A stretch of DNA of 64,000 bases, from contig OX637290.1 of assembly GCA_951799445.1 (NCBI GenBank), positions 31,552,987 through 31,616,986 on the forward strand, written 5' to 3'. The translations under genes and the position numbers were made by a program. The DNA comes from Pseudisothecium myosuroides (taxonomy: Eukaryota; Streptophyta; Bryopsida; Hypnales; Lembophyllaceae). The notes beneath the pieces are model-generated. The model worked only from the letters and a program-made list of their open reading frames with translations, was not told where the DNA came from and did no database searches. Shown here piece after piece: positions 9,208 to 59,972 of this stretch; within the stretch, counting starts at the first letter, position 1; each line of letters opens with the position of its first letter.

Positions 9208-9211
9208 TTAA

Positions 9212-10096
9212 CCCCGAAAGGCCCAAGGCCTTTTTTCTGCCAAAAAACACTCAAAACTGCCATTTCTAAAGCAAGGAGTAAAAAAATTTGAAAAAAAATT
9301 TTTTTGCACATCTAACTGTAGAATCTTATACCAAACTAGTATGAGAATGTGTGGAAAAAATTTCAAAATTTTTGACCGCTTAGATTGCAAGATATCTGCA
9401 TTTAAAGTGAAAAAAACAAGTTTTTCAGCACATTGCGGGACTATATTTTTTGACTTCAAACATTTTTAACTTAAAATTTTTGCACTGCAGAGTTTTGAGT
9501 TTAAATCTTTATAGTGGAGAATTGAGTTGAGAGTCAAGGGAAAAAAATTCAAAGAAATTTAATTATCATTCTTAAAAAAATTGTTAAGTTAGAAGTAGGT
9601 ACAAGATAGAAGGAAAATCTAAAATATTCATATATTTTAGATGGAATTAAAATGCACTAATCCCAATGGTGAGATTGTTTTAGCAAGTAAACTAAACCAT
9701 GCAAAAAAAATTTGAAAAATTGCATTCAAAAATGAATCCTACAGCCCGAAAAACAAGAATGTCCATAACTTTTTCATAACAAATCCAAATGAAATGAATC
9801 AAAGCTTTCCAGATAGAAAAAAAATATAATATATGAGAAAAAAATATTTAAAAAGAAAAATTCAATTTTTGCATATTTGTTTTTGCTGCCCGGGCTGTCC
9901 CTCGTCCCTTGTTTTGAGCTTATTTTGTCATAATAGTTGTTCCCGGGCACCGATTGTGAAAAAAAAAATATTCCCACAAAGCTTATTAGTTTTTCTATCT
10001 TCAAAAAAGTTTCAAAAAATCACAATAAAAAATCAGCCCGTAAATACCTGCCCAAAATCCCATTTGTCCCCCGAAGGGACAATGGGCCTTTAGGGG
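9212..10096 (+). mobile_element. TTAA-flanked MITE, family A copy 1 (piggyBac-like)
   Basis: 885-bp element flanked by TTAA at 9208-9211 and 10097-10100. Left end CCCCGAAAGGCCC, right end GGGCCTTTAGGGG, an inverted pair. The interior is non-coding and recurs in other family A copies (for example the 'actgccatttct' block near the left end and 'cccaaaatcccat' near the right). Precise TTAA duplication plus CCCC/GGGG ends is the piggyBac signature; no transposase is present. Confidence 0.85.
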
Positions 10097-10100
10097 TTAA

Positions 10101-10754
10101 AATGTAGTCCAAATAATATATATAAGCGATATTATTGTCACTAAAACTTTGAAGGAATATACTACTACTCAAGGTAGTTCAAGCAGTACATTGAGAGTTT
10201 GAACAATGAATGGACATCCAAACACTAATTGAATGATATGGTATTTGGATGGATGCAATGTAAATAATGTGAACATTTGGATGAAATTTAGATGAAAATT
10301 GGACAACACCTACAATATTTGAGATAGTATGAGAATAACAGAGACTACATTGTATTGAGTTTATCTAAAATATTGAGAAAGACAATATTAGTGTGCCTTG
10401 CAACTTAGCTTAACTCCAAATATAATATAAATAAATATTGAATAGTATTGACAATAGGTAAATATTACTCCAAAATTAACAAGTTATGATATATATTGTT
10501 TTTATTATCTACCATCCCTCATGCTTGAATGACTTTGGCCTTGGTACACCCATTGAGATGGTCATGAGTTCAAACATGTGCATTGGCAAGGTGCATATCG
10601 CTATAGTCTATCTAATTATGGTGGGGTCAAATGACCTCATTTTTAGATGGGGGCTTAAGAATTTCTCAGGGGAAGAAACATTTCATTTTTTTTATAAGAT
10701 CTACTTCCTAATGGAGGTATCAAGGATGGAATTTTCCATCTAGGTCTATGAGGC
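10101..10754. other. AT-rich spacer, nothing recognised
   Basis: No element ends and no similarity to the other repeats noticed. A short open frame at 10486-10743 has no recognisable protein features and is not called. Confidence 0.4.
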
Positions 10755-10758
10755 TTAA

Positions 10759-11655
10759 CTCTTGATTTCACAAGGCCTTTTTTTTGTCATAAAACACTCA
10801 GAACTGCCAATTCTACCATGTTCACCCCAAAAAATAGAAAAAAAATATTAAAAAAAAATCTAACCACATGATTGTGTACTTCACTTGCTTTCAATTGTGT
10901 GGCAAATTTTTTATGAATTTTGATTATAAAAATTGGAAGATATTAGCATTCAGAGTTGGAAAAAAAACTAAACAATGGCCTGTAATTTCAGATGACTTTG
11001 ATTGCCATTTGTAGAAATTTTTTGCACTATAGACTTTGAATTTTTTTTTTAATTTTTAAAGAATTGAGTTGAAAGTTTAGAAAAAAAAAATTCAATAAAA
11101 AACACATGATTATCATTCTTTATAAAATTGTTGAGTAAAAGTAGGTCAAAGATTGAAAAAAAAACTAAATTGTTAATAGCTCTAAGATGGAATTAAAATA
11201 TAACAATCCCAATGGTGATATTGTTCTAGCAAGCAAAATTGACCCTCTCAAATAATTTTTTTGAAAAATTGTGAGAATTGCATTCAAAAATAAAGCCTAT
11301 GTTATTTTTTCAAAAAAATGCTTAGATTGCCCGGAAAACAAGATTTCCTTAACTTTCTCATTACTAGTCCAAATAGAATGAATTAAAGCTACACATGTAG
11401 AAAAACTATAATATTTTAGGAAAATTTTAAATTTTATTTTGACTTCCTGCAAAATTTTTGTATTGCACGCCAAGTTCAATTATAGGCTTTTTGTAGTATA
11501 ACTTTTGCTCACAGGCACCAATTGAAATAAAAATTATATTCCCATGAAGCTATCAATTTTTTCTATCTTATGAGAAAGTTTCACCAAAAACTGAGGTCAT
11601 AGAAACCTTCCCAAAATCCATCTTGTCCCCTGAGGGGACACTAGGGCTTTATGAG
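10759..11655 (+). mobile_element. TTAA-flanked MITE, family A copy 2 (diverged)
   Basis: 897-bp copy flanked by TTAA at 10755-10758 and 11656-11659. Ends have decayed to CTCTTGATT and TTTATGAG. The interior follows family A in order, including the 'aaaacactcagaactgcc' block at the left and 'cccaaaatccatcttgtccc' at the right, so this is an older insertion. Confidence 0.78.
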
Positions 11656-11676
11656 TTAAATAGTGAATCCACTCTA

Positions 11677-12076
11677 AGGTAGAGCCACCAAAAAACGACC
11701 AAATAAGGAATTCCGACATGATCTAGAGTTGTCAAGGCAAAACAAATATTTTTTAAGAGGTACATCAATAGAAATGACACAGATTGCAAAAAAATTAGTA
11801 ATTTTATCGCTTGAATTGAAATTACTTGAATTTTGGGAAGCAAAAAGTACTCCGGACCTATTGCCAATGTCTAGACTCTTCCAATTCCGATCATTCAAGA
11901 AAAAATTTCCTAATCATTATTTCCTACTTCCTTCCTCACAATTTGGGACATGTGTCATGTATTTATTAGTTCCCACTTAAAAAGGAAAAAAATAACATTC
12001 TAAACTTAATTAGAAATACGTGCACCTATAGGTCGGGAATGGGTCACTGGTCGGGAATGGGTGGCTCTACCTTACC
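11677..12076. mobile_element. MITE with TAAGGTAGAGCCACC inverted ends
   Basis: About 400 bp; left end taaggtagagccacc and right end ggtggctctacctta form an inverted pair. The interior ('ccaatgtctagactcttcc', 'gggacatgtgtcatg') recurs near 6.8, 7.55 and, reversed, 25.9-26.15 kb. No open frame of interest. Confidence 0.65.
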
Positions 12077-12414
12077 TCCTAACAAAAGCATCAAGGATAG
12101 AATTTGCCATCTAAGTCCAAAAAGCTTAGATAATCAGCCCATTCCCAATAGACACTTCATTCATGCCAATCCTTTCTAATTCAAGTTAGCCATCTTCTAT
12201 TTACACTTTGAAAATGATTACATTTTAACCCATATGATTATGACGGCCAGGGTTGGTTTGGGGTACACTTGGAATCAACAACTTCCAAAATCCCTCCACA
12301 ATTTATTCATATGTTTAAAACATATATATGAAAAGAATTCCAAATCCTCTTCCAATTATCAACAATAACCTATGCAAACTAACTAAGCCAATTTCAATTC
12401 ATAGGCCCCATGAT

Positions 12415-12735
12415 GAAATCTACAACACACGTACACTACAAGATTGTACAGTTGAGATTTCTATAACTTAGTGGCATTTACATCTACAATAGAACCTCTC
12501 TAAGCTGATCATTCCCAGACCGGTCTGACAGATTGGTTAATAGAGGTTTATTGACTTCTGGAGGGTCATTTTTAGTCACAGCCTTTGTTATGTGGCCTAG
12601 TCTGGGACCGGTCTGACATGATTGATTTACGGAGGTTTATCTGCTTACAGAGGTTCAACTTAGAGAAGTTCTACTGTATAACACTTCAAAAGCAATGATG
12701 TTTTTGAACCCGAAAAGGCCTTGGTCTTTCAGGGG
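12415..12735 (-). mobile_element. Family B fragment interrupted by a pogo-like MITE
   Basis: Right-hand part of a family B element, matching 27460-27584 in order ('ctacaacacacgtacac', 'agcaatgatgttttt'), ending CAGGGG before a TTCA that replaces the usual TTAA. The unit 12487-12676 is inserted in it. Confidence 0.7.
12487..12676. mobile_element. Emigrant/pogo-like MITE, copy 1
   Basis: 190 bp flanked by TA (12485-12486 and 12677-12678). Left end CAATAGAACCTCTCTAAGC and right end inverted as CAGTAGAACTTCTCTAAG. These resemble the known plant Emigrant/pogo-type terminus with AACCTCT near the end. The homologous family B sequence at 27510-27545 lacks the insert and has a single TA there. Confidence 0.82.
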
Positions 12736-12739
12736 TTCA

Positions 12740-13660
12740 TGTGGTATTCCCTTGCTTGAATTTTTGGAGCTGCTGCAGTGCCATTACTAACTTAACTCCT
12801 CCGTCTCCAGGCCCATGAGTGTGAATTGCACAATATCTTTCAGCTGTTTTTATTTGCATGCCCAAATGACATTGACAGAGATCTGTAAGGCAAAAAAGGC
12901 CTTGGCGAAAGGGATGCGCGAAAGGCTTGGAGCTGGTGGGAATCAAGTGAGCAAGCAAAGGTGTTCATGATGTTGGTTGTGCCAGTACCATTACGAATGC
13001 GAATCCCATGGAGGAGACGAGATGAACGGGTTCACACTGACATGGAAGCACGAAGAGAAAGTGGTGCAGCCAACTTCCAGGGAAACGGAACCTCCCCAAA
13101 TGCAAGAGTCGTTCTTCAGAAGCTGCAGAAAGAATCTATTGTTTGGAGGAAGAGCCCTTTTTTTCTTCTTCTTGAAACACATGGACAATTTCATTAGGGG
13201 ACATTGGAGGCCTCCAGAGGGCTGTTTCAGGGTTGCTTCTCTAGCATGTTCCCCCATTCTAAACCAGCAAATAACGTTGTCAGAATTTTTTTCCAAAAGT
13301 GAAAAAAAATATTAAAATCAAAATATTTTCTTTTCCAAAAAATTTGAGGTGGCACTCTCTCGACCACATCAGACTGCGCATGTGGCAGAGTTCCCAACAC
13401 TGGAAACGTGCTAGGAACTCGTAGTCTTCTAATGGACTCAAATGTCTTCTAATGCCATAGGTAAGGGAAATAGTACACAGAACCAAGGGACAAGTCGTCA
13501 GCAAAAGTCATTTGTATTAGAACTGAAAGAAGAGCCCATTTTGGATACAACAGTTGGGGGAAGTTAACCCAATCTCACGAAGTGGGACCACTAGGCTGAA
13601 AACGCAAGAATTAGGGGGAAATGTATTAAAAAATACTGTATTTTGTGCCATGTTACTTAG
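12740..13660. other. Low-copy intergenic DNA, no gene recognised
   Basis: Base composition is more mixed than the surroundings and several short frames overlap on both strands at 12961-13315, but none has a recognisable domain, splice structure or partner copy in the window. Confidence 0.35.
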
Positions 13661-13679
13661 TCCTATGTTCCTCACCCCC

Positions 13680-14520
13680 ATCTAATTGGGGGCCTTTGAT
13701 TGCAAATATGAACTTAGAATTTGCAAAAGAAATCATGTGTGAAAAATAAAAAATTCTTGTGTTTTTCCCAGGGGTAAAATTTATGCATTTTTACCCTGCT
13801 GGTTTCATTTCATGGGACGGATTTAACGTCTTGCGAAGCAAACTGTTGGCAAATTTGTGATGTTAGTATAGTCTGATCCAAGAGATTTATGAACTTTTCT
13901 TCCCAAGCAAATTTAACTAGCAAAAAGTTCTTGAATTTTAGAAATCTTCTAGCATACTCAAAAATGGATAGATTTCCAAATTATAAATTGTGTTGGAACC
14001 ATAGTGTAGAGAGTACTTGAATGTCATACAACAACTTCTAGTGAAGTGGAGGCAAGCTCATGGTATGAAGAAGTTAGTTTGGCTTCTAATTTTCCATTGA
14101 TAACCTTTTGAAGATAGTCAAAGATTTGTTGCAACACTAGAGCAAAACAATGAACAAGCAAAAAATGATGCAAACAATTCAAGTCGTACGAGATCAAGTA
14201 TCTTTATAGCAATTGCACATTATTGCTCGTATCTAAGATGCCCAATAGAATGCAAGCTATAATTTGAACAAAGATTGGCAATGCTAAATGGTAGATAGTC
14301 TATAGAAAATATTCAAATTTTTGTATGATTTTGAATTTAACATGTATCTATTTGTTATGATGATCAAGTATTCTTCACTATAATTCCAACAGAATTTGTA
14401 ATTTGGACATCTATTCATTTTTTAGTATGCTAGAGCTTCCTGAAGTTCATGAACTTTTACTAGCTAAATCTGCCTAGGAAGAAAAATTTGTAAGATTTTT
14501 AAACACAACTCTACAATGCA
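13680..14520. repeat. Inverted-repeat element with arms of about 140 bp
   Basis: The stretch 13880-14010 (with 'gaacttttcttcccaagc', 'actagcaaaaagttcttg') recurs inverted at about 14350-14490 ('aagttcatgaacttttac', 'cctaggaagaaaaattt'). A block at 13690-13780 ('tgcaaatatgaact') also recurs at 55180-55260. Diverged fold-back transposon is the likeliest reading. Confidence 0.5.
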
Positions 14521-14554
14521 TGTGCTAGCTTACATGAGGTAGGAAACTCCAAAT

Positions 14555-15404
14555 GCTCCAAAAACTGCCATTTTTGGACACATGTAACCGTAGGATCTTG
14601 TAGTACTCTGCTTTGAGAATATGTGGAAAAATTTTCAGAAATTTTCATTGTGTAGATTGGAAGATATTAGCTTCGAAGTGGCAAAAGTCCTTTTTCTGGC
14701 CCTGCAAAAATCCGGGCAGCTGCACTTCACAAGGTCAGATTATTATGAAAAATTCCAAAATGGTTGTGCTTCTTTGGATTCATTCTTCAGGGCAAGTTGG
14801 CTACATGCTTGAAAATTTTCAGATTATTTGGAATTGTACAACATATAGGAAAAAATTAGTAAGTAGAAAGAAGTAGAGAATGGTTCAAAACACTAAATTG
14901 TTAAGAAGTTAATTATGGAATTAAAAAATGCCAATCCCAATGGTTGCAATGTTGTAATAAACAATCTACACCCTACAATTTTATTTTTTTGAAAAATATC
15001 AAAAATTGAGTGAAATAAACGGCTTCAAAGTTTATTTTAGAGTAGACAATCCATAACTGCCCGCAAATTGAAAACCCTCATAACGTTTGACTCATTGATC
15101 AGAATGGAATGATTCAAAACTTTCCACGTATATATAAATCTAATAAACCAATTTCAAATTTTTATTTTTGAAAAAAGTGATATTTTCATATCTTCCCAGA
15201 CTGCCCAAGTTGAGAAACAAACAACATATTAGGCCATAACTTTTGACTCGTATTTCCAAATGTCATGAAATTTGGTGCATATGAAAGACATTCCTCGTCC
15301 CCACCTTCTCTAAATATTTCAGCCCAAAATATGCAAATCTCTAGTCACACGTACCTGTCCAAAATTTCTATGTTGCCAAAAAAGGCATGTTGGTCCTTTA
15401 GGGG
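14555..15404 (+). mobile_element. TTAA-flanked MITE, family A copy 3, left end missing
   Basis: Right end GGTCCTTTAGGGG followed by TTAA at 15405-15408. The left side starts at the 'aaaactgccatttttgga' block without the CCCCTAAAGG terminus, so it is 5'-truncated. Interior matches the copies at 34.8 and, reversed, 17.1 and 59.0 kb. Confidence 0.75.
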
Positions 15405-15467
15405 TTAAATTTATTTTTTTAAATTTAAAAAAATGTTCAAAAAATCTATTTGAAATTTAAAATAAAT

Positions 15468-16050
15468 AAAAAATGTGCTTGAGGTGTGCTTGAAGTCTAT
15501 GTCAAGCACACCTCAAGCACATTTTTTTATTTTTTTTATTTTGCTTTGCTTTGTTGTTTTTTAAATTCAAATGCAATGAGAATAGTGAAAGAGTGCTTGA
15601 GGTATGCTCAAGGTAGACCTCAAGCACACCTCAACCTCTATTTGATTTTTTTAAAACTTTAATTAGAATTTTTTAACACTATTTATTTTTGGAAATTTTG
15701 GTCAAATGAAATGAGAAAAAAAAGAATGTACTAAAAGTGTGCTGGGGTCTATGTCAAGCACACCTTAAGCACACTTTGATTTTTTTGAAGATTTTGACTA
15801 GAGCTTTTTAACACGATTTTTATTTGGAGTTTTGATTAAGAGGAAGTGAGAAAAGTTAAAGTGCGCTTGAAGTGTGTTTGAGGTTTATATCAAGTACACT
15901 TCAAGCATACTTTTAGTTGTTTTTTATTTTTAGTAGAATTTTTGAACACAGTTGTTTTTGGGAGTTTTGATTCAAATGGAATGAGAAAAGTGAAAGTGTT
16001 ATTGAGGTTTGCTTGAGGTAGACCTCAAGCACACCTCAAACACATTTAAA
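15468..16050. repeat. Tandem array of hairpin-forming units
   Basis: Five imperfect units spaced roughly 125-140 bp, each with a back-to-back gtgcttgaggtgtgcttga / tcaagcacacctcaagcac pair. The first hairpin is perfect: 26-bp arms 15468-15493 and 15502-15527 with an 8-base loop. Later units near 15592, 15737, 15861 and 15996 are diverged. No coding sequence. Confidence 0.8.
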
Positions 16051-17104: not shown

Positions 17105-17108
17105 TTAA

Positions 17109-20142: not shown

Positions 20143-20146
20143 TTAC

Positions 20147-21062
20147 CCCCTAAAGGACCAAAGTCCCCTTAGTGGACACTTGGGATTTTGGGCAGGCTAT
20201 GTGACTTGAAATTTTGACCTGATTTTTTGAAAAAAAAATTGATGATAGGAAATCACATTAGCTTTCTAAAAATATAATTTTTTTTTCAATCAGTAGCTGG
20301 GAGCAAAAATTATGCCACCCAAAGTCAAAAAACTAGTTCGCTGGGCAAAAAAAAAAACTTAAAAAACTTAGATTAAAACTTTTTTTCTCTCAAAGATCAT
20401 GTTTTTGTCTACATTTGAAGCTTTGATTCATTCTGTTTGGACTTAGATTGAGAAAGTTATGGACAATCTTGTTTTTCAGGCAATCTAAGCATCTTTTTCA
20501 AAAACAACTTATAGAATTCATTTTTGAATGCAATTTTCAAATTTTTTTAATTTTTTTTTGACAAGGTTAAGTTTGTTTGCAAGAACAATCCCACTGTTGG
20601 AATTATGATGTTTTAATGCCACCTAAGAGCTATTAATGATTTAGTATTCTATTCAATTTTGGACCTACTTCTACTTATCAATTTTTTTATATGTGAAAAT
20701 CAAGTTTTGACATTCTGAATTTTTTTTCCCTAACTCTCAATTCAAATGTTCAACATAAATTTTTTTAACTTTATGGTGAGTATTGCAAAAAAAACCCACA
20801 AATGGCTGTCAAAAGTCATCTGAAATTACAATCCACAGTTCAGAAAAACTTCTTTTTCCAACTTCAAATGCCAATACTGTATCTTCCAATCCATACAGTC
20901 AAACTTCATGAAATTTATACCATATAATCTTAAGACAAGTGAAGTATAAGATCCTACGATGAGATTCTAAAAAAAAGTTTTTTGTGGTTTAGGGAGTGAT
21001 CTCAACAAAAATGGCAGTTTTCAGTGGTTTCAGAGCCAAAAAATGCCTCGGTCCTTTAGGGA
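20147..21062 (-). mobile_element. TTAA-flanked MITE, family A copy 5
   Basis: 916 bp; left end CCCCTAAAGGACC after TTAC (20143-20146, one change from TTAA), right end GGTCCTTTAGGGA before TTAA at 21063-21066. Interior is reversed relative to copy 1 (for example 'tggacaatcttgtttttcag'). Confidence 0.82.
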
Positions 21063-21600
21063 TTAAGAGATGGCTCTTTCACAGTAGGCCACTGTGACCA
21101 CCAAATAGATAAGACCAGTCACAATTTTTTCAAATCTAGATTTTTCAAAGATTGACAACTAGTTCTTAGGAGGCAATGCTTCAAAAAGTATCCGTCATTA
21201 GTTGCCGCAACATCAATCTTATCTGAGCTCCCCATCACCACCCACATAAGATCAGTGATTTCCAACGTTTGCAGGTCTAAATTCGCTTGTTCTTACAGGT
21301 TGGTATCTCTAGGAAGCAACCCATTCTTGATAACCCCCCATTTTGGCTATGTAGATTGTTTTCTTTTCGTGAAGGAGGAGAAGAACAATGATTAATTATG
21401 GCACGGTTCTTGAGGTAGTTGTGGTGCATTTTGATTGGCTACAAAACTCTCAATATTGCAACCACCCTTTGGCCAATTTTGTTTTCAGTCCATGGTTGGA
21501 AATAGCAAGCCCTATATCACCGGTATGGGAGGAATACAATCTTCCGCTGAAAAATTCATAATAATTATGTTTTGAGAATTAAAAATCTGAAAAATTATGG
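21063..21600. repeat. Dispersed repeat, family E copy
   Basis: Shares ordered blocks with 6330-6560, 25370-25500, 43000-43140 and 44640-44940 ('tggttggaaatagcaag', 'gattggctacaa', 'attaattatggcac'). Element ends are not clear. No gene. Confidence 0.5.
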
Positions 21601-22793: not shown

Positions 22794-22797
22794 TTAA

Positions 22798-23754
22798 CCC
22801 CTCATTGCCTAAGGCCTCTTTGAGTTTTAAAACATCATTGCTTTTGAAGTGCTACAATTATGGAGATCTCAACTATACAATCTTGTAGTGTACATGTTGC
22901 AGATGACGAGAATCAAATTTGGAGTCATTTGGCCACATAGATTGTAAGTTTATAACGTTTTAGTGTTGAAAAGAGATGCTGAAATTTTCCTACCAACACA
23001 TTTGGAGGTGAAATTCGATTTCTAAACCTACTCAAATGGAAAAACTATACACTGTAAAGTGATTCAAAACCACCATACAAAGACATCGGTGAAAAAAAAT
23101 ATCATTCAATTGCCTCATTACGTCTACAAAATGGCTTTGAAATGTTAAAAAAAATAGCAAAAAAAGTTGCAAAAAACACATCTAGGGTTGAACCTCTTTC
23201 TACTAAAATGCTTCTCAGTCACTCATAATTTTTTGAATTGGTATGAAATTTTAGACACACAAACTAGACTAGTATGGGCAACTTTCCCAAAAACATTTAT
23301 TGAAATTGAACACTGTATGAAGAAGAAACAAGCCACCCAAGTTCACTGGAATCCAAAAATGTCTAGATTTTGAACTTCGAAATTGCTCCCAAACATACAA
23401 AACAACTTGGATTGACATGAAAATTTTACCACAATAACTAGACTTCAAGGGGAACATGATCCAATAAATTTTATTGAAAAAGAACATTAGATGAAGGAGA
23501 TACAAGCCCCCAAAGTTGCAGCCTTCAAATGCAGTTTGGTGAACTCAAATTGAACCTGTGAACTTTGATTGGCTTCCAAGACATCATTACATCTTAGGAT
23601 TGATCTGAAAATTTTATCACAGAAACTAGAAGAGAGAGCGCAAATTTTCCAACAAGTTTTATTGAATTTGGACATCGGATGCAAAAGTTACAGCACTTTG
23701 AATTGGACTTGAAACTATGTGAGGACACTTTTGGTCCCCTTAGACAATGAGAGG
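22798..23754 (+). mobile_element. Family B TTAA-flanked MITE, copy 1
   Basis: 957 bp between TTAA 22794-22797 and TTAA 23755-23758. Left end CCCCTCATTGCCTAAGGCC, right end CCTTAGACAATGAGAGG, an inverted pair. Interior recurs at 26618-27584 (reversed) and 31509-32478. No transposase. Confidence 0.87.
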
Positions 23755-24079
23755 TTAATCATGGAAGGGTTACGAGATGTTCCTAAATTGTTTCTTCAAC
23801 ATATGTACATGTTGAACTGGGAGATGTCCAGAGCGCGATGATGACAGTTTTAGGCAGGATACTTGCCTTCGACAGCAATCCTGAAGTGGTAATAATGGTA
23901 TTCCCAGTGTCATACAATAGTGCCACGTAGGGCATCTCCATCCATCCACTGCACGCAAGTAAGTTCACTTAGGCCAATTGGCTCTGAACATGGGAGTACC
24001 AGAACTTATGTGACATGTGCTGACAGGGAGAAAATTGTCCTTGACAATCATGCTCTTCCAAAACTTTCTCCAGAGACCA

Positions 24080-24540
24080 GATAAGGTAACCGACTCATTT
24101 CCAACCACTTAAGCAATTATGCATATTTGGAGCGCAGGTTTTTGGAGTATGGATTTTTTCACATGTACAGTACATATGGGAAGGGGCTGTAAAAGCGACC
24201 CTTTACCAGCTGATTTGCATTTTGGGGGAAGCTAAACTCCTCAGAACAATTTTCAGTAAATTTATGTGGTAAGAAATATGGAATTGGCATCTAACCCAAG
24301 TTGTTTCATATTTTTTGGACATTCATGGAATTAGTTATGAATTTTTGAAGTTGAAAACACAGTGGTTTCTAAAAGCGACCCCCTCCTGAAATGTACACTC
24401 CTGATACATGTTAGAGGCAAAATCTACCAGATCGTTTTTAGAGACAGATCGCTTTTACAGCCCCCTCCCATATATAGAGTTTGAAAGGATTGCATATTTT
24501 TCCAAATTTTTATTACACAAAACGTACTCCCTTTGTCCCA
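24080..24540. repeat. Family G repeat with an empty TTAA site, carrying a family H insert
   Basis: From 'aaccgactcatttcc' this repeat matches 42350-42720. At 24109-24112 it has a single TTAA where the 42.4-kb copy holds a 222-bp element between two TTAAs. A family H unit (24181-24466) is inserted further right. Confidence 0.8.
24181..24466. mobile_element. Family H MITE
   Basis: Inverted ends gaaggggctgtaaaagcgac at the left and, on the other strand, gagggggctgtaaaagcgat at the right. ATAT stands on both outer sides and may be the target duplication. The interior block 'atattttttggac...gaattagttatgaa' recurs at 30.2 and 42.0 kb. Confidence 0.72.
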
Positions 24541-26178: not shown

Positions 26179-27719
26179 CTCCCTCTGTCCCACTAAAAAA
26201 CTCCAAAAAGCTTTCCTATGAGGGATTAACTACATTTTTAGTCTTTCTGATAGGGATACATGCATTTGAAAACTAGCAATCCATTGTTTAGATCTCTATA
26301 AAATATCTAACTTAGGCACCATTGTTTAGGCACCCAAAATCCATGTAGAAAGTATCATTTTTGACAAATTTGTAAACACTGCCAACTCCATCATTCTTGA
26401 TGATTTAAATGTTGGTAGCAACATTGGGATTCTAGAAACATCTACTGCAACCTAAATACCCACAACAAAGATCCCTACACTACTTCAAGAACAATTCTTC
26501 AAAGTATCGAAGTGGTCACCAAATCCATTGTCAATACTACTGCCTAAGGAAGCACATTGGGTCCAAGGTGTCTCATATTGGCAAGGCCAAGCTTTCTTGG
26601 CGAAGAATGCTCCTTAACCCCAAAGTGACAAAGAGGACAAAAAGTGTCCTCACAGAGTTTCAAGTCCAGTTCAAAGTGCTGCAACTTTTGCATTCAAGGT
26701 CCAAATTCAATAAGACTTGTTGGAAAAGTTGCGTTCTCCCTTCTATTGTTTGTATGGTAAAATTTTCAGATCAATCCAAGATGTGTTTATTTTTTGGAAG
26801 CCAATCGAAGTTCACAACTTCAATTTGAGTTCACCAAATTGCATTTTAGGGCTGCAACTTTGGGGCCTTGTATCTCCTTCATCCATTGCTCATTTTCAAT
26901 AAAATTTGTTGGATTTTGTTCCCCTTGAAGTAACTTATCGTGGTAAAGTTTTCATGTCAATCCAAGTTGTTTTGAATGTTTGGGAGCAATTCGAAGTTCA
27001 AAATCCTGCCATTTTTGGAGTGTAGTGAACTTTGGCGGCTTGTTTCTTCTTCATACAAAGTCCATTTTCAATAATTCTTTTTGGAAAAGTTGCGCATACT
27101 AGTCTAGTTTTTGTGGCTAAAATTTCATGTTAATCCAAGAGTTAATGAGTGACTGAGAAGCATTCTAGTAGGAGGTTCAGCTTTAGATGTGTTTTTTGCA
27201 ATTTTTCTTGCTGATTTTTGACATTTCAAAGCCATTTTGTAGACACAATAATTCAACTGAATGAATTTTTTTTTCACCAATGTGTTTTTATACTAGTTTT
27301 GAATCTTATTTGAGTGTAAAGTTTTTTCATTTGAGTAGGTTTAGAAATCAAACTTCACCTCCAAATGTGTTTTGGGGAAAATTTCAGCATCCATTTTCAA
27401 CACTAAAACATTATGATCTTACAATCTATGTGGCCAAATGACTTCAAAGTTTGTACATGTAATCTACAACATGTACACTACAAGATTGAATGGTTGAGAT
27501 TTGTATAACTTGAAGACATTTAGATCCATAAAGCTTCAAAGCAATGATGTTTTTAAACCCCAGAAATTGAATGTCACTTTGAGGTTAATCACTTCACTTG
27601 CCCCCATGAGGTCGTTCAACACGGCCAACATTTATCCAACAATCGAAATCTAAAAACGGAGCTTTTTAGTGAGACAGAAATTGTGCTTGATTTGGAGGTT
27701 TTTAGTGGGACAAAGGGAG
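26179..27719. mobile_element. Stowaway-like MITE split by a family B element
   Basis: Flanked by TA at 26177-26178 and 27720-27721. Left end CTCCCTCTGTCCCACTAAA; right end inverted as CTCCCTTTGTCCCACTAAA. Total 1541 bp; removing 26618-27584 and one TTAA leaves about 570 bp, shorter than the 790-bp relative at 24527-25316. Confidence 0.85.
26618..27584 (-). mobile_element. Family B TTAA-flanked MITE, copy 2, nested
   Basis: 967 bp between TTAA 26614-26617 and TTAA 27585-27588, inserted in a Stowaway-like element. Ends CCCCAAAGTGACAAAGAGG and GTCACTTTGAGG. Reversed relative to copies 1 and 3. Confidence 0.88.
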
Positions 27720-31263: not shown

Positions 31264-32515
31264 CTTAAGGTAGGTATCCCAAAACCGCCACTAATTGCTA
31301 CTGTGCCTAATTACTAGTCTTAGACTGTTCAAATTCTTATATTTTCTTATTGGCAAGGGAAAGGAGGTTCCAACGCACCAAAGAACACGACATTTGGATA
31401 TTGTATGCAAAAGTTATGAAGGAACAAAGTCTGGTTCTAAAAGCATTTCTTTCACAGAGGTACATAACTGATTTTGGAGATGTACACACACTGAAGATGG
31501 TGCTTTAACCCTTCACCGCCCAAGGCCGTTTTGGGTTCAAAAATATCACTGCTTTTGAAGTGATATAGATCTAAATGTCACTAAGCTATAGAGATCTTAA
31601 CCGTACAATCTTGTAGTTTACATGTTGTAAATGATGTGTATCAAATTTGAAGTCATTTGACCGGATAGATTGCGAGATTATAATGTTTTAGTGTTGAAAA
31701 AGGATGCTGAAATTTTCCTAAAAACACATTTAGAGGCGAAATTTGATTTCTAAACCTAATCAAATGAAAAAACTTTAAACTATAAAGTGATTCAAAACCA
31801 ACATACAAACACATTGATGAAAAAAAATATCATTCAATTGACTCAATGTGCTTGCAAAATAGCTTGCAAATGTCAAAAAATAAGCAAGAAAAGTTGCAGA
31901 AAACACAGACGAGGCTGAACCTCCTTCTACTAAAATGCTTCTCAGTCATTCATAACTTCTTGGATTGATATGAAATTTTAGCCACACAAACTAGACTAGT
32001 ATGCGCAACTTTCTCAAAAAATTTTATTGGAAACGGACACTATATGAAGCAAATACAAGCCGCCGAAGTTCACTGTAGTCCAAGAATGCCGGGATTTTGA
32101 ATTTCGAATTGCTCCCAAACATTCAAAACAACTTGGATTGACGTGAAAATTTTACCACAATAACTAGACTTCAAGGGGAATGTAACCCAACAAATTTTAT
32201 TGAAATCTAACAACGAATGAAGGAGATACAAGCCCCCGAAGTTGCAGCCATGAATTGCACTTTGGTGAATCAAATTGAACCTGTGAACTTCGATTGGCTT
32301 CCAAAAAATCATTACCTCTTGTATTGATCTGAAAATTTTACTACACAAACTAGAAGAGAAGGCGCAAATGTCCCAACAAGTTTTATTGAATTTGGACATC
32401 GGATGCAAAAGTTACAGTACTTTGAATTGAACTTAAAACTGTGTAAGGACACTTTTCGGCCCCATGGGCGGTGAGGGGTTAAGGTCAGTGGCGCATTTGG
32501 GATGCCTACCTTACC
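31264..32515. mobile_element. Family C MITE with TAAGGTAGG ends, split by family B copy 3
   Basis: Left end taaggtaggtatccc and right end gggatgcctacctta form an inverted pair. The interior ('gcaccaaagaacacgacat', 'gattttggagatgtacac') matches 19430-19690 and 33070-33240. Its continuity is broken at 31505 by a TTAA-flanked element. Confidence 0.75.
31509..32478 (+). mobile_element. Family B TTAA-flanked MITE, copy 3
   Basis: 970 bp between TTAA 31505-31508 and TTAA 32479-32482. Left end CCCTTCACCGCCCAAGGCCG, right end inverted as CCCCTCACCGCCCATGGGGC. This is the least diverged end pair of family B in the window. No open frame encodes a transposase. Confidence 0.9.
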
Positions 32516-33040
32516 TCAGATAAATTACCTCATGACTCAATACTTGTTCACATGGAGGCGCATGCAACTCTTTAAATTGGGCCTTGAAGTGGTGCACTAA
32601 TCTATGCTATACCCATGGCTCTGGATTGAATGCATCATTGCACAGTAGCAGTGAATATTCACATAGTGTGGACCCTCGAGAAATTAGTGTGAGGCCACCT
32701 AATTTCACTATTTTATGTAGTGGGTATTGGGATATAAAGTGGGCACCTCAAAGGACCTACTTTGTGTGACTGTGCCTACACTAAATAATAAAATTGGGTT
32801 GCCTTGATAATTAGGTTGCCTTCATTAGAAAAGTTACCTCATGACTCACTACTTGTCCAGATGGAGGCACATGCCGTTTTCTAAACCCAAGCCATGAACT
32901 AGTGCACTAATCCATGTAATACACATGGTTTCTACATTACTGCATCTTTCTACAGTCTCTGTAGATATTTATACAGTATAGAATGTTGAGAAATTAGTGT
33001 GGGGGAACCTAATTTCACTATTTAGTGTAGATACTATTAT
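32516..33040. repeat. Direct duplication, period about 308 bp
   Basis: Blocks such as 'acctcatgactca' (32528 and 32836), 'tggaggcacatgc'-like (32554 and 32863), 'gtgcactaatc' and 'cacctaatttcactat'-like occur twice in the same order about 308 bp apart. No gene in either unit. Confidence 0.75.
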
Positions 33041-33240
33041 TAGATTGAACAAATTTTCATGAATTCCAACAAGTGAAAGGAGGTTTCAACATTTCAAAGA
33101 ATGCGACATTTGGGTATCATATGCAAAAGTTATAAACGATCAAAAAAAATTTCCCCAAATAGGTATATATTGATTTTGGAGATGTACATAGAGTAGTGAT
33201 GGGAATTTAGGTCATTGGCGCATTTGAGGGTGTCCACCTT
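33041..33240. repeat. Family C fragment without insertion
   Basis: Matches the flanks of the family B copy at 31.5 kb across its insertion point: 'gagatgtacatagagtag' then 'gggaatttaggtcattggc', uninterrupted. It serves as the empty-site counterpart. Confidence 0.7.
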
Positions 33241-35940: not shown

Positions 35941-35973
35941 TTAAGTGATTGACTATGGGTGGTCCTGCCTTAA

Positions 35974-36938
35974 CCCCTAAAGGACCGGATTGCGTTTTTT
36001 AGCTGTATAGATATTTTGGGCAGGTCCGTGTGACTAGAGATTTCCATATTTTAAGCTGAAATTTTAGTAGAAGGTGGGCGCGAGGAATATCTTCCATATG
36101 CACTAAATTTCAGCACATTTGGAAATAGGAGTCAAAAGTTATGGCCAAATATGTTACTTTTTTTCGTAACCGGGCAGTCCGGGCAGCAAGAAAAATTTGG
36201 CAAAAATTTGGATTTTTTTTTAGATATTTTTTTTCTAGTAGATTGTATTTTTGTCTATCTGGAAAGCTTTGATTCATTTCATTTGGATTTGTTATGAGAA
36301 AGTTATGGACATTCTTGTTTTTCGGGCAGTTAGAGCATCTTCTTGAAAAAAATAACTTGTAGGATTCATTTCTAAATGCTATTTTTGCAATTTAAAAAAA
36401 AATAAAAATTCTCATGGTTTAGTTTACTTGCTAGAACAATCTCACCATTGGGATTAGTGTATTTTAATTCCATCTAAAATATATTAATGTTTTAGATTTT
36501 CCTTCTATCTCGTACCTACTTCTACTGAATAATTTTTTTAGGAATGATAATTAATTTTTTTTGAATATTGTTTTTTTTCCTAGACTCTCAACTCAATCCT
36601 CCACTATAAAGATTTGAAGCACAAAACTCTGTAGTGCAAAAATTTTAAGTGCAAAATGTTTAAAGTCAAAAAATCTAGTCCCGCAATGTGCTGAAATACT
36701 TGTTTTTTCCACTTTAAACACAGATTTCTTGCAATCTGAGCGGTCAAAAATTCTGAAATTTTTTCCACACATTCTCATACTAGTTAGGTTTAAGATCCTA
36801 CGGTTAGATGTGAAAAAAAAACATTTCTCATTTTTTTTTACTCCTTGCTATAGAAATGGCAGTTTTGATTGTTTTTTGGCAGAAAAATGGCAGTTTTGAT
36901 TGTTTTTTGGCAGAAAAATGGCCTTGGGCCTTTAGGGG
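35974..36938 (-). mobile_element. TTAA-flanked MITE, family A copy 7
   Basis: 965 bp between TTAA 35970-35973 and TTAA 36939-36942. Ends CCCCTAAAGGACC and GGGCCTTTAGGGG. Near the right end a 30-bp piece ('ggcagttttgattg...') is duplicated in tandem. Interior is reversed relative to copy 1. Confidence 0.88.
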
Positions 36939-36942
36939 TTAA

Positions 36943-42349: not shown

Positions 42350-42780
42350 AGTAACCGACTCATTTCCAACTAAGTTACTTAACCCTTGAACGCCGGACTG
42401 GTGACCGTGGAAATCAGCTCTTTTCCAACCGTGTGACATCATCTACTATAAAAAATTCAAAAGTGCGCAGTGGAGGTCAAACTACTGTGCAAGGTCTCCC
42501 CTTTTTGTACAAAATTATAACGATGAACAATTGCAATTCTGTCCTACATGCAAAGATTCTTTGTCATTCATCGGCCAGAAAATGGCCGCCGCGTCGTTCA
42601 AGGGTTAAGCAATAATGCATATTTGTATTTGGATCGCAGGTTTTTTGAGTGCGGAATTTTTCCCGTGTACAGAAATAGAGTTTGGAAGGATTGCATATTT
42701 TTCCAGAATTTTATTACACAAAATGTAATTACTATGAAATTTTTTAGTGGAAGATTTTCTTTGACATGTAATGGTGATAT
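42350..42780. repeat. Family G repeat, copy with TTAA insertion
   Basis: Parallels 24085-24540 on both sides of the 222-bp insert at 42383 ('aaccgactcatttcc' before, 'gcaataatgcatat' after). Continues with 'gaaatagagtttggaagg', also seen reversed at about 44930. Confidence 0.78.
42383..42604. mobile_element. TTAA-flanked MITE, family K, with empty-site proof
   Basis: 222 bp between TTAA 42379-42382 and TTAA 42605-42608. Ends CCCTTGAACGCCGG and, inverted, CCCTTGAACGACGC. The host repeat at 24.1 kb has a single TTAA at the same point. A related end stands at 53977. No coding capacity. Confidence 0.92.
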
Positions 42781-53748: not shown

Positions 53749-53802
53749 TGCTTTTTGTTCCCCCCAAATTAAACCTATCTCGCAACTGGCCACCGATTTC
53801 AC
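53746..53802 (-). pseudogene. Possible remnant of the ZNF830 zinc-finger coding segment
   Basis: Codons directly before the Met at 53748, in its frame, read VKSVASCEIGLIWGEQKAM. This resembles the second half of the family's finger (VKS..W..H..S..H K) with the two His positions replaced by Gly and Gln. Upstream, another frame carries NCVRC. I read this as a possibly decayed or sequence-error-affected finger; the match is short and could be chance. Confidence 0.3.
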
Positions 53803-53861
53803 AGCGGACACAGTTATAGAGTACGCGAAGGTCTGACTCGGCACCTGAGTACCGAATGACT

Positions 53862-53915
53862 TTAGGGTTTTGCGCGTGAAGGGTTTCGGCAGGTAAAACT
53901 CCTCGTTTAGGGTTT
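53862..53915 (-). promoter_or_regulatory. Two telo-box motifs upstream of the ZNF830-like gene
   Basis: AAACCCTAA on the minus strand at 53862-53870 and again at 53907-53915. Telo-boxes are common just upstream of plant housekeeping genes and near transcription starts, which suggests transcription begins close by, at about 53.9 kb. Confidence 0.5.
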
Positions 53916-53976
53916 AAGCATTCCGGCGTTTGAAGGCCACTTTCCACTTGGGCTTAGTTAACACCTGCGGATTTAA

Positions 53977-54050
53977 CCCTTAAACGACGGGCTGGAACAA
54001 TTGTGGAAAGCCCTCGAGTTTCACTATCTCGCTGTCTCATATGTCAATGC
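53977..54050. mobile_element. Orphan end of a family K-like TTAA element
   Basis: TTAA at 53973-53976 followed by CCCTTAAACGACGGGCTGG, close to the family K end CCCTTGAACGCCGGACTGG. No matching right end was found nearby, so it is partial. It lies about 230 bp before the first visible ZNF830-like Met. Confidence 0.6.
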
Positions 54051-55160
54051 TCGCATATTGGTCCTGACATTGCACCACTACGAGAACTTCACGACGAAAT
54101 CCACAAACCTAACATTGAAGGAGTAGAAACTGAAATATTGAAGAGTAAAAAACGACAAGCACCTAGATGTGCGGTGCTATCGAGCAACAATCGAACCCAG
54201 AAAGGTACACAGCGAAATCTCAGATAACAAGATCCAATGACACACCGGTCAGACCTGTGTATTACCTCTGTGGCTCCCAGATTCTCAATAACTCCCAATT
54301 TATTCTCTGAACAGTCCAAGCCAATCACTGTATTAGATTGGAAAATGCGACCAGACTTGCTCATAGAACAAACAAAAAGGTACTACTTAATTCCTGCTCA
54401 AGGTTTCAGAGATGTCCTGTACAGAAGGAAATCCAACTTGGCGCATTCAATCCAACTACTTCAATCAAAGTAAGAGAATTCAGGCCTATGCATTGAGGAC
54501 CTACGATTACTTCAGTTATGAACGTTTTAAAAATTTTACACTTAAAAAGAACAGAGAGCAGGGCAAAGAGAAATTTGGAAAGTGGTACTGATAAAGCGAA
54601 GACTAACCGTGATAAAGATTAGACCGCATTCCCAAGTAAGTGCAGCAGCTGCTAAAGAATAAAAACAATTCAGCATTTCCCAACCCGATGTGCCAATGCC
54701 AATGAATTACTCCATCCTCCTAAACCCTAGAAAAGCCGAAGAAGAAAACAGGAGGAGGCAATCCCAAAACTGCTTCACAACTCGAATCCAGTGATGAACC
54801 GTGATAAACAATAGGAAAATCGCCGACTCCAGAAAAGCAAAATTACGATCGAGTGTTCATCATCTGCATCCCATATTCCAATCCAAATTGAGCACCCACG
54901 AAAACGAAACGGAAAGAAAGAGCCTGACAACAACGATGAGAGGGGGAGAGGGCTCTACAGAATGGGCAGCAAGGCTGTCGACATCGTCGGGGTCGAACCG
55001 TGCAGGCGAAGGAAGGTCCGCTCCAGGATCCGGCATGCCTGCCGTGGCGCCTCTGCACTGTGGAGCACAAATGGAGCCAGAAACTAAGCGGAAACAAAGC
55101 AATTGAGGCCAACGTTGGTCCCCTATTTTGTGCTTCATTAATCTATTTCTCTATACATCT
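54051..55160. other. Upstream region with a GC-rich patch, no gene recognised
   Basis: 54930-55090 is GC-rich with frames open on both strands, including 92 codons on the minus strand from 55138, but I recognise no domain and no splice partner. A telo-box-like aaaccctag lies at 54722. It may hold an upstream exon or a divergent promoter. Confidence 0.35.
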
Positions 55161-56430
55161 CCTAGCTAACTTGGGACGTTTGAATGCAAATATGAACTCA
55201 TAATTTGCAAATTTTATCATGTGTTGCAAATAAAAGTTCCTGCGTTTTCTCTAGAAGTAAAATGGGGACAAAACAACCTCTACATTAGGCTTGTTGCACT
55301 ACTATAGACTTGACTGTCCTAGAGGATTGTCAGCCCGCGCACATGTCCAGTTTTTTCATGCCACCCCTCGGCCCAATGTCCCAAGGCGTTTAGGGTTTCC
55401 ACTTGCAACCCGGTAGTGGAAATTTGAAGCCCTGTTCGCTAATTTTTTTCCACGCCCCATCCACCAAGTCTTGGGAACCTGCGCTCGTAGTTTGCTTGTT
55501 CGCGAAGCTCGGCCTTTTCTCCATGCTCAGCCTTGCGCTTGTAGTGGAGGACACCACCTTCCTAAGCTACGCTCTTTAGCCTATGCTTTTGTAAAATTTG
55601 TATGGTCACTTCCATTTTCCACCATCTTTTTACGAAGAGAGCATATGATTTTATACAATTTCTGTGGCCACAGTTTTAACTTGTGTTAAGGTAATCACAC
55701 CTAATTACGTCAATGCTTGGGGAGCGCACTCCCATTTTTTTGGTACACGTGCGATTAAACAAAGGGATATTTTAATTGCCATGGTCTTAAATTTTCGACA
55801 TGGCTTGGAAATAAAGTAGCATCATTGTAATGGGGTTAGGGTCTTTATAAGTAACAAAGGATAGGGGAAAATAATGAAATTTATCTTTTTTTTATTTCTA
55901 CAATAGCTTTACCAAAAATTAACAAATAAATCTAAATTTTTATTAGAAGTATTAGAGGCACTAAGTTACAGCTGTGTGAAGACAAGGCATCTAGAGGGGG
56001 ATCCAAAGTCTGCTGGTTCACTGTTGTTTTTGAGATGTATCTCAACTGTAAGTTTCTAATTAAGCTTAATTACTACTAACATATGGACTCATTGAAGCCT
56101 AAAGATGAATAAAAGAGGTTTTCTAATCGAATTGGTGGATGATGGCACTCAATTCGACGCCTTCCAAGTTCATTGTTGCACTATGGCGATGTGCGGTTGC
56201 TTGTCAGGAAAGATTTTTGCTGCATTTTGTGAATGGTGTGGTTTTGCAATACAATTTTCTGTGATTGCTTTGTCTGATTTGCCTAGAGCAAATTTTATGG
56301 CCACTTTTAGGTTCAAAGTATTTCTTGATTGGAGAAACTTTGTTTTAGAAGTGTTAGCACTTTATTTTTCAAACTAGTATTTGTTAGACCATAGTTTCAA
56401 TTTGGAACCACAAATTCCTTGAATATACTT
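55161..56430. other. Spacer, no gene recognised
   Basis: 55165-55260 matches 13690-13780, a dispersed repeat end. A 90-codon frame at 56105-56377 has no recognisable features. Nothing else is supported. Confidence 0.35.
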
Positions 56431-56439
56431 TGTGTTTGC

Positions 56440-57590
56440 AAGCACTTCATATTTTGAAATTGCATCCTAAATTTCACTCCTTGTTTTGTACAATCAGGTC
56501 TAATTCATTTACAAACTACTTCTTTGAGTCATTTAAATTTTTTTCTACAATATACTGTATAATTGGCATATTTTTGGTATATTTTTAATGCAATCCCAAT
56601 CAAGCATACCAAATTTCAATTTCAAAAAAACAAAATTTTATTTTTGATGAATTTTTGAAGTCAATTTTTATGGTTTTGCATAATATTTTATTGAAAACAA
56701 TTGGTGACAATTTTTTCTAATTTGATTGTATACATATATAGGAAACATCTATATGCACATCTTTTGTATTAAAAAACACCCCATTAAGTAGCAAAAATAT
56801 GAGCTAGGAAAATTAAATGTGAGGCGTCATACACTACAAGAGAAAGGGGTGTTTTAAGTAGTATTCTAGACATCACGTCTTTTAAGTAACGTCTTTTAAG
56901 TAAGTTTTTAAGTAAAATTTTACTGAAAAGACAATCTTTTCAGTAAAATTTTACTTAAAAACTTACTTAAAAGACGTTACTTAAAAGACGTGATGTCTAG
57001 GACACTACTTAAAACACCCCTTTCTCTTGTAGTGATATGACCAAAATTTGTGAAATAGATATCTTTATATTTTAACAAGATTTTGGCAAAGTAATTATAA
57101 CATCATGCTAAAATGTAAAAAATTAGTTACAATGTGAGGGTCAAATAGTAAAATCTAATTAAAATATAAAGATATTTATTTGATAAATTTTGGTTATATA
57201 ATGCATCACATTTAACTCCTACTAGCTCATATTTTTGTTACTTAATGGAGTGTTTTTTAATATGAAAGATGTGCATATGGATGTTTCCTATATATCTATG
57301 CAATTGAATTAAAAAATTTATCACCAATTGTTTTCAATAAAATATTTTGTAAAACCATAGAAATTGACTTCAAAAATTTACCCAAAATGGAATTTTTCTT
57401 TTTTGAAACTAAAATTTGGTATGCTTAATTGGGATTGCGTAAAAATTGGATGTTAATTATGCAAGACAAAAAATTCTAATTTTTTTTATACACTTTGCAA
57501 TTAAAATTGGAATGGCTCAAATTGAAAATTTGTAAATGAACTAGACTTGATTGTACAACAGTTTTTGAATGTGCAATTTTCCAAAAAGAA
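56440..57590. repeat. Large fold-back element, arms of about 400 bp, with a nested CACTA-type MITE
   Basis: Left arm blocks 'tgtacaatcaggtctaattc', 'caatcccaatcaagcatacc', 'ccatatgcacatctt'-like and 'gagctaggaaaattaaatgt' recur inverted on the right as 'gaactagacttgattgtaca', 'ggtatgcttaattgggattg', 'gatgtgcatatggatg' and 'acatttaactcctactagctc'. The loop lies near 57120. The left arm is interrupted at 56830-57034. Confidence 0.85.
56830..57034. mobile_element. CACTA-type fold-back MITE
   Basis: Nearly perfect inverted repeat of about 205 bp: CACTACAAGAGAAAGGGGTG at the left, CACCCCTTTCTCTTGTAGTG at the right, arms of about 100 bp. Flanked by ATA on both sides, fitting the 3-bp duplication of CACTA (CMC/EnSpm) elements. 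The high arm identity suggests recent origin. Confidence 0.87.
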
Positions 57591-57899
57591 TTTCACTATG
57601 AACCCACGAAGTGTATGAATGTTTTTTTGGGTGTTATGAATTTATAATGAACATAGGGTACATTAAAATATCGCAAGAATTTTTTTAAATGAAGTCTAGG
57701 GTACATGAAATTATCAAAATTTAGAAATTTAGATAAATAAAGTCCTATGGAAATCAAAAAAACTTACCTACATAGCCCCTATGTTATAGAGGCTTGAACG
57801 TAGAATACCCACAAATAACGTACATAGTGCACTTCCCGAGTGTCAATGATTTCAAGTAGGTTTCATCTCAATAAGTACTTTTAATACCTCCACTAATGT
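57591..57899. other. AT-rich spacer
   Basis: No gene or element ends recognised between the fold-back and the tandem array. Confidence 0.4.
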
Positions 57900-57939
57900 C
57901 AATATTAAGTAGAAAAAATAGAAAATTTGGCATAAGTAA

Positions 57940-58720
57940 AATTATAAATGTACAATTGGGTACGTGTGAAAATGGTGTTTTTGCAATTCTAGGGAAAGAA
58001 ATTTTACTAATGCCAACCGTAACACCCTCCCAAGGGTTGAAAAATAATTTTTTCTACCATGAAACTTTGGTATGGAATCATCTCTATGTTAATAAAAAGT
58101 GTGCCAAATTTCAAGGTCAAAAAATTCACTCAAAATAAGATATTTGAAATCTACAAGCATGTGTAGTTGTGAGAAACAATTTCATTACTATCAATTTTGA
58201 CACTATCCCAAGGGTTGAAAAATTATTTATTTACCATGAAATTTTTGTTGTGAAATCATCTCTATGTTGATAAAATGTATGCCAAATTTCAAGATCAAAA
58301 GATTCACACAAAATAAAATATTTGAAATCTATTAGCATGTGTAGTTGTGAGAAACAATTTCATTACTACCAATTTTGACACTATCCCAAGGGTTGAAAAA
58401 TTATTTATTTACCATAAATTTTTTTGTTGTAAAATCATTTCTATGCTGATAAAATGTATGCCAAATTTCAAAATCAAAAGATTAAAACAGAAAAAGATAT
58501 TTGAAATCTACCAATGTGTGTAGCTATAAGAAAAATTTCATTGCTGCCAAATTTGACAAATTTTCAAAGGCTGAATTTTTTTTTGACATGAACTTTTTGG
58601 TATGGGTTATCTCTATGTTGATAACAAGTATACGAAATTTCAAGGTCAAAAGATTCACAAACAAAAAGAAATCTACGAACGTGTATAGTTGTAGGATCCC
58701 CTTGTTGCCAGTTTTGTAGA
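57940..58720. repeat. Tandem array, about four units of 180 bp
   Basis: The block 'cccaagggttgaaaaa' occurs at about 58029, 58208 and 58387, with a decayed fourth near 58565 ('tttcaaaggctga'). Between them 'atttgaaatctac', 'catgtgtagttgtgagaaac' and 'tgccaaatttcaa' keep the same order. Period is 179-180 bp. Non-coding. Confidence 0.87.
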
Positions 58721-58739
58721 CTTGTATTAGGGGACAATT

Positions 58740-59030
58740 TGGCAACGAGGATGGAAAAAATTTGGAGATGATGTGAGAAAATGTAAAATAGAATGTTCCT
58801 TCCAATCTCTCCCTAAAATTCATTCATAACTTTTGATTTGGGACTTAAAATCTCAAACGAATTTTTAGAAATTAAAGTTAGTTTGATTTCTCAACTTTTT
58901 TTAGTTCAAAGTTTTTTGAAATTTTTTATTTTACTATGCCTAAATGAGGTCTAAATTTCTACTTATAACACAATTCCTATGTTTTACATAACTATGAGCA
59001 ATTGAGGTCCTACTAATTTTTTGAGATGTC
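58740..59030. repeat. Single arm of the fold-back repeat seen at 28.93-29.35 kb
   Basis: 'aatgttccttccaatc', 'aaatctcaaacgaatttt', 'ctatgcctaaatgaggtcta' and 'ctatgagcaattgagg' match the right arm of 28930-29350 in order. The opposite arm is absent here. Confidence 0.75.
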
Positions 59031-59045
59031 GACTAAGACATCTAA

Positions 59046-59968
59046 CCCCTAAAGGACCAACATGCCTTTTTTGGTAACATAGAAATTTTGGGTAGGTACG
59101 TGTGACTAGAGATTTGCATATTTTGGGCTGAAATTTTTATAGAAGGTGGGGACAAGGAATATCTTTTATATGCACCAAATTTCATGACATTTGGAAATAC
59201 GAGTCAAAAAATTATGGCCAAATATGTTGTTTGTTTTCCAACTCGGGGAGTCCGGCCAGATAAAAAAAATCACTTTTTTCAAAAATAAAAATTTGAAATT
59301 GGTTTATTAGATTTATATATACGCAGAAAGCTTTGAATCATTCCATTCTAATCAATGAGTCAAACGTTATGAGGATTTTTAGTTTGCAGGCAGTTATGGA
59401 TTGTCTACTCTAAATTAAACTTTGAAGTCGTTTATTTCACTCAATTTTCAATATTTAAAAAAATAAATAAAATTGTAGGAGGTAGATTGTTTATTACAAC
59501 ATTACAACCATTGGAATTGACATTTTTCAATTCCATAATTAACTTCTTAACAATTTAGTGTTTTGAACCATTCTCTACTTCTTTTTGCTTACTATTTTTT
59601 TCCTATATGTTGTACAATTCCAAATAATCTGAAAATTATAAGCATGTAGCCAACTTGCCTTTAAGAATGAATTTAAAGAAGCACAACCATTTTGGAATTT
59701 TTTTAATAATAATCTGACCTTGTGAAGTGCAGCTGCCCAGTTTTTTGCAGGGCCAAAAAAAGACTTTTGCCTCTTCAAATGCTAATGTCTTCCAATCTAC
59801 ACGATAGAAATTTCTGAATTTTTTTCCACATATTCTCAAAGCAAAGTATTACAAGATCCTACGGTTACATGTGTCCAAAAATGATATTTTTCAAAAATTT
59901 GGTACTTGTAATAGAAATGGCAGTTTTGGAGCGTTTTTGGTGAGAACATAGTCAAGGAACTTTAGGGG
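59046..59968 (-). mobile_element. TTAA-type MITE, family A copy 8, with CTAA target duplication
   Basis: 923 bp flanked by CTAA at 59042-59045 and CTAA at 59969-59972. Ends CCCCTAAAGGACC and AACTTTAGGGG. Interior is the reverse of copy 3. The flanking host repeat ('agatgtcgactaagac' / 'agatgtcaacttagac') also occurs at about 60.48-60.59 kb. Confidence 0.87.
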
Positions 59969-59972
59969 CTAA

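What the first reader, a model, noticed from the sequence alone, without database searches (positions are those of the whole stretch)
9208..59972. Several families of TTAA-flanked MITEs, apparently piggyBac-like, in a land-plant genome
About 15 elements in at least six sequence families (A, B, D, I, J, K) begin CCC or CCCC, end GGG or GGGG, have short inverted ends (for example CCCCTAAAGGACC) and are flanked by TTAA. TTAA target choice with CCC-type ends is the established signature of the piggyBac superfamily. To my knowledge piggyBac is known from animals, fungi and algae but is not an established land-plant transposon, so a burst of such elements would be new. The superfamily assignment is inference, because no transposase lies in the window.
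Basis: partly seen in the sequence, partly recalled or inferred. Interest (0 to 1): 0.88.

Follow-up and report, generated by a model that had tools for sequence, protein, structure and literature searches.

The report
Active piggyBac transposon families in moss
A moss genome is full of cut-and-paste jumping genes of the piggyBac family, known mainly from animals, including full-length copies that look recently active and many short passengers that appear to use their machinery.

The parts
9208..10100 (.). non-autonomous TTAA element, 893 bp including both TTAA
   Evidence: exact TTAACCC/GGGTTAA pair; one end 200/286 identical to the end of autonomous element L018
10755..11660 (.). decayed relative of the 9208 element, ends mutated
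   Evidence: 65% over 942 columns to 9224-10111; one end 192/270 to L018
14549..15408 (.). family A copy, left end truncated
   Evidence: 90% over 891 columns to the 59042 copy; right end 246/298 to L018
17105..18871 (.). family A copy interrupted by other sequence
   Evidence: 82-83% to 14703-15414 and 59043-59749; ends match L018 (232/292) and L021 (114/143)
20143..21066 (.). non-autonomous TTAA element related to the 9208 and 10755 copies; TTAA at left reads TTAC
   Evidence: 69% over 924 columns to 10773-11663; one end 219/278 to L018; ends
22794..23758 (.). family B copy
   Evidence: 84% over 982 columns to 31505-32482; TTAACCCC left end, TTAACCTC right end
26614..27560 (.). family B copy, right end lost
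   Evidence: 84% over 953 columns to 22824-23758
31505..32482 (.). family B copy with both ends
   Evidence: exact pair; related unfilled site at window 33032-33240 reads TTTA where the filled one has TTAA
34759..35695 (.). family A copy, both terminal TTAA mutated; used as genome-wide query
   Evidence: ends 238/293 to L021 and 236/292 to L018; 9,820 first-look candidates, 43 matches listed including itself
35970..36942 (.). non-autonomous TTAA element
   Evidence: exact pair; 83% over 724 columns to the 9208 element; ends 174/226 to L018 and 142/192 to L017
38636..39480 (.). non-autonomous TTAA element, 845 bp
   Evidence: exact pair; 83% relative over 579 columns in L024
40503..41077 (.). 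575-bp MITE with TTAACCCCTAAAGGACC at both ends
   Evidence: 2,974 first-look candidates; the 40 scored (itself 100%, 39 others 94-95%) span at least query 3-574 of 575
42379..42608 (.). 230-bp TTAA MITE
   Evidence: exact pair; related unfilled site at window 24071-24170 holds a single TTAA
59042..59972 (.). family A copy, terminal TTAA mutated at both ends (CTAA, TTAG)
   Evidence: ends 240/296 to L018 and 231/295 to L021
302..4015 (-). part of an ABCB-type transporter gene, used to place the host

Best explanation
These are non-autonomous members (MITEs and somewhat longer internal-deletion derivatives) of several piggyBac transposon families in a moss nuclear genome. Full-length elements of 5.1-6.8 kb elsewhere in the genome encode a piggyBac DDD transposase. 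By homology, the transposase binds the short inverted ends, cuts at the CCC...GGG tips and inserts into TTAA, which becomes duplicated; it acts on its own element and on deleted copies that keep its ends. Shown here: transposase genes, matching ends, TTAA junctions on many contigs, near-identical dispersed copies. Inferred: the catalytic steps, mobilisation of the short copies in trans, and present-day activity.
Against: Six of 14 window elements (22794, 26614, 31505, 38636, 40503, 42379) match autonomous ends only at the tip or weakly, so their partner element is not identified. The cysteine-rich tail pattern was found in 6 of 11 moss frames. No expression, excision or new insertion was observed. 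One of the 20 copies carries ATAT instead of TTAA on both sides. In three of the four better unfilled-site alignments the TTAA has changed in the unfilled relative, and two looser ones (L010, L023) show no TTAA there either. The end motif is less dense outside: 1 in 27.6 kb of eight tubulin loci against 19 in the 64-kb window by the same count.
Confidence: 0.95

Rival explanations
1. The TTAA elements belong to another TTAA-duplicating superfamily such as Kolobok, or to an orphan TTAA group like Wuneng/Microuli, and only resemble piggyBac.
For: TTAA duplication is not unique to piggyBac (Kolobok: recalled; PMC6004289 was seen only in the listing. Wuneng/Microuli: passage of PMC2872659). Six window elements have no long match to a known autonomous end.
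Against: Elements with the same ends encode DDE_Tnp_1_7. In 8 of 14 window elements an end matches theirs over about 200-300 bp. The unlinked 40503 element has the same 17-base tip as the linked 35970 and 15408 ends.
Confidence: 0.04
2. The transposases and MITEs are contamination (for example from an animal or a protist) in a plant assembly.
For: piggyBac is best known from animals; the only matches with an organism name are two fish and a sea urchin.
Against: Hits lie on each of C1-C11. The MITEs lie on the same contig as a moss ABCB gene. The transposases form their own clade apart from the animal sequences. The L021 element sits in a repeat whose relatives are in the window.
Confidence: 0.01
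3. The families are old and dead; nothing has moved recently.
For: Window copies of families A and B differ by 10-19% and several have decayed ends.
Against: Dispersed 5.4-5.6 kb copies differ by 0-2 substitutions and keep open frames of 1056 and 1091 aa; 39 dispersed copies of the 40503 MITE are 94-95% identical to it.
Confidence: 0.08

Closest known systems
piggyBac (Trichoplusia ni) and piggyBat transposases
   Different: 21-24% identity over the aligned core; 9 of 11 moss frames are 840-1091 aa in elements of 5.1-6.8 kb, against 500-725 aa in 2.1-3.5 kb for beetle elements (PMC12732532, passages)
piggyBac-type MITEs of animals, such as coral CMITEs (PMC2872659, passages)
   Same: non-coding, inverted ends, TTAA duplication
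   Different: land-plant host; window copies 0.23-1 kb rather than about 100 bp
TTAA elements Wuneng (MITE) and Microuli (named in a passage of PMC2872659; that they are from rice is recalled)
   Same: TTAA duplication
   Different: here the coding partner is found in the same genome; I did not compare their sequences
Unnamed environmental transposases P0001-P0003, P0134-P0155
   Same: fall in the same clade as the moss frames in the FastTree; up to 69% identity
   Different: host unknown: Logan, JGI or ENA contigs without organism names

Membership tests
piggyBac superfamily | DDE_Tnp_1_7 transposase in elements with these ends | tested here: met
piggyBac superfamily | DDD catalytic triad | tested here: met
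   10 of 11 moss frames; L026 has N at the second position
piggyBac superfamily | piggyBac fold of DNA-binding and catalytic parts | tested here: met
piggyBac superfamily | TTAA target site duplication | tested here: met
   35 of 40 ends of 20 copies; 24 of 33 divergent ends; six near-identical autonomous copies
piggyBac superfamily | short inverted ends starting CC[C/T]T | tested here: met
   CCCCTAAAGGACC and variants; feature as given in PMC2872659 (passage); a few ends differ, such as CCCCGAAAGG
piggyBac superfamily | C-terminal cysteine-rich domain | tested here: inconclusive
   pattern found in 6 of 11 moss frames with one regular expression
piggyBac superfamily | precise, footprint-free excision | not testable with these tools
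   needs an assay
MITE | non-coding, inverted ends, target duplication, high copy number | tested here: met
   no frame of 130 aa or more in the window resembles a transposase by eye; 9,820 and 2,974 first-look candidates for two families, loose counts
MITE | mobilised in trans by the partner transposase | not testable with these tools
   end similarity in 8 of 14 only
Kolobok | Kolobok transposase in elements with the same ends | not tested
   no Kolobok profile was searched

The most novel reading that the evidence does not exclude
Mosses carry their own long-standing clade of piggyBac transposons. Its transposase gained a large N-terminal extension with a Tudor-like reader barrel that steers insertion to particular chromatin, a plant counterpart of chromodomain-guided integrases.
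Probability: 0.2. Interest if true: 0.82.

Novelty: new variant of a known kind. Interest (0 to 1): 0.7.

Why it matters
It puts autonomous, apparently recently active piggyBac elements, with their swarms of short derivatives, in a land plant. A 2008 paper said that only five cut-and-paste superfamilies had been described in plants, piggyBac not among them (PMC2528002, passage); a 2025 survey of MITEs in 207 plant genomes sorts them into five main superfamilies and its main text does not mention piggyBac (PMC12550479, passages). Annotation schemes that lack the class would miss or misfile it. It raises testable questions: vertical descent or transfer into mosses, and what the added N-terminal part does. 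Moss elements might also serve as plant-native gene-delivery tools (speculation).

Tried and rejected

The plastid (PF00124, PF00223) and GRAS (PF03514) searches meant to place the host did not complete; the ABCB protein was used instead. Genome-wide counts for the 31505, 38636 and 42379 families did not complete. Searches scored 40 candidates each of 9,820 and 2,974; total copy number is not established, and the copies whose ends I read are the best-scoring ones.

Full report
Observation. The window has 13 TTAACCC and 9 GGGTTAA sites, with six exact convergent pairs at 150-1100 bp. In 200 shuffles that keep dinucleotides there are about five of each and 0.3 pairs (maximum 4), but the 17-base tip TTAACCCCTAAAGGACC (up to 3 mismatches) occurs 18 times against a mean of 0.135 and a maximum of 2. 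Self-comparison and inspection of ends give 14 elements or remnants. Family A (14549, 17105, 34759, 59042) shows 81-90% identity between copies; family B (22794, 26614, 31505) 83-84%; 9208 and 35970 share 83% over 724 columns, with 10755 and 20143 as more distant relatives; 38636, 40503 and 42379 have no close copy in the window.

Host. An ABCB transporter gene at 302-4015 (-), continued outside the window in L037, was spliced by eye. Named matches include Ceratodon purpureus (90% over 73% of the query), Sphagnum jensenii (78% over 99%) and Marchantia paleacea (71%). Ceratodon is in Bryopsida. The assembly has 387.9 Mb in 222 contigs.

Insertion. Three copies of one element on C2, C3, C10 differ by 1-2 substitutions over 5,400 columns, and three of another on C1, C5, C8 by 0-1 over 5,611; flanks differ and identity starts and stops at TTAA. 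With TTAA cut off the queries (two of its four bases remained in 2 of 46 queries, because of coordinates), 24 of 33 divergent ends (under 98% identity) in window and loci are preceded by TTAA; five more are so after a shift of one or two bases, and four read TTGA (twice), CTAA and TGAA; background is 0.0043 per site. For family A and for the 40503 family I fetched both ends of the ten best-scoring copies other than the window's own. Strict TTAACCC stands at 14 of 20 and 16 of 20 ends. TTAA itself stands at 18 of 20 ends of family A (the other two read TTAG; read by eye, since the script counts 14 and fails to place or misplaces five) and at 17 of 20 of the 40503 family (one copy ATAT on both sides, one end TAAA). 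Related unfilled sites were found for L021 (two), 31505 and 42379; the last has a single TTAA, while the other three read TCAA, TCAA and TTTA.

Link between window elements and transposase elements. The two ends of each of the 14 window elements were compared with 24 ends of 12 autonomous elements. Of 28 ends, 11 score above the maximum of 150 random window 300-mers (95; median 14), in 8 elements, with 205-298 aligned bases, such as 246 of 298 from the first base. The random pieces were drawn from the whole window, elements included. Family A has one end like L021 and the other like L018. For the other six elements only the tip or weak stretches match, so their partner is unknown.

Copy number. 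Family A had 9,820 first-look candidates, 40 scored, 43 matches listed at 76-100%; the 40503 family had 2,974, 40 scored, all 94-100% and nearly full length. First-look numbers are loose; I give no total. The end motif is found 41 times in the 198 kb of transposase loci (including the elements themselves) and once in 27.6 kb of eight tubulin loci, against 19 in the window by the same count, so density varies.

Relationship. Trees put the 14 moss frames tested in one clade with unnamed environmental proteins (support 1.00 in FastTree; 89.4/95 in IQ-TREE), apart from fish, sea urchin, piggyBat and T. ni piggyBac. Seven frames fall in each of two deep lineages. Three partial proteins (P0003, P0152, P0155) were dropped before the second tree. 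Whether other mosses have these elements was not tested; the protein collection gave no match with a plant name (13 and 29 hits), which is weak evidence because transposons are often masked before annotation.

Literature. In ten paper searches, mostly seen as listings, I found no description of an autonomous piggyBac element in a land plant; the library lacks most subscription journals and all preprints. [quoted passage not shown] in the moss paper PMC10619864 the word only occurs as 'piggybacking' in the passage shown. So the kind is known, its full-length form in a moss looks undescribed, and the enlarged transposase makes it a variant.

Verdict. Observation confirmed; piggyBac assignment supported at about 0.95; current movement likely but unproven.

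Noticed in passing
L012 5900-6187 (-) and equivalents in L009, L019, L020, L026, L027: Conserved ~60-aa region in the N-terminal extension of the transposases, predicted as a small Tudor/SH3-like barrel.
   Followed up: partly
L007 144, L012 2815, L022 3973, L024 922: Four cases of two elements butted together sharing one TTAA (GGGTTAACCC); elements seem to insert into the TTAA of other elements.
   Followed up: partly
L064/L065 (G000:C4:14704555-14705129): A copy of the 40503 MITE flanked on both sides by ATAT instead of TTAA, consistent with rare insertion at a non-canonical 4-bp palindrome.
   Followed up: partly
56486-57558: About 1.1-kb inverted-repeat element with TTGTACAATC at both ends, superfamily not determined; the L021 piggyBac sits in a related repeat.
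   Followed up: no
58028-58659 and 15567-16039: Tandem arrays of 178-bp (3.6 copies) and 135-bp (3.5 copies) units.
   Followed up: no
L017, L018: Two transposase elements on C10 and C6 that are 98.9% identical and also share about 1.15 kb outside the element, so they were copied with flank or lie in a larger unit.
   Followed up: no
P0134-P0155: Related transposases at 37-69% identity, many from JGI metagenome contigs and some from Logan or ENA, host unknown, possibly moss DNA in soil or peat samples.
   Followed up: no
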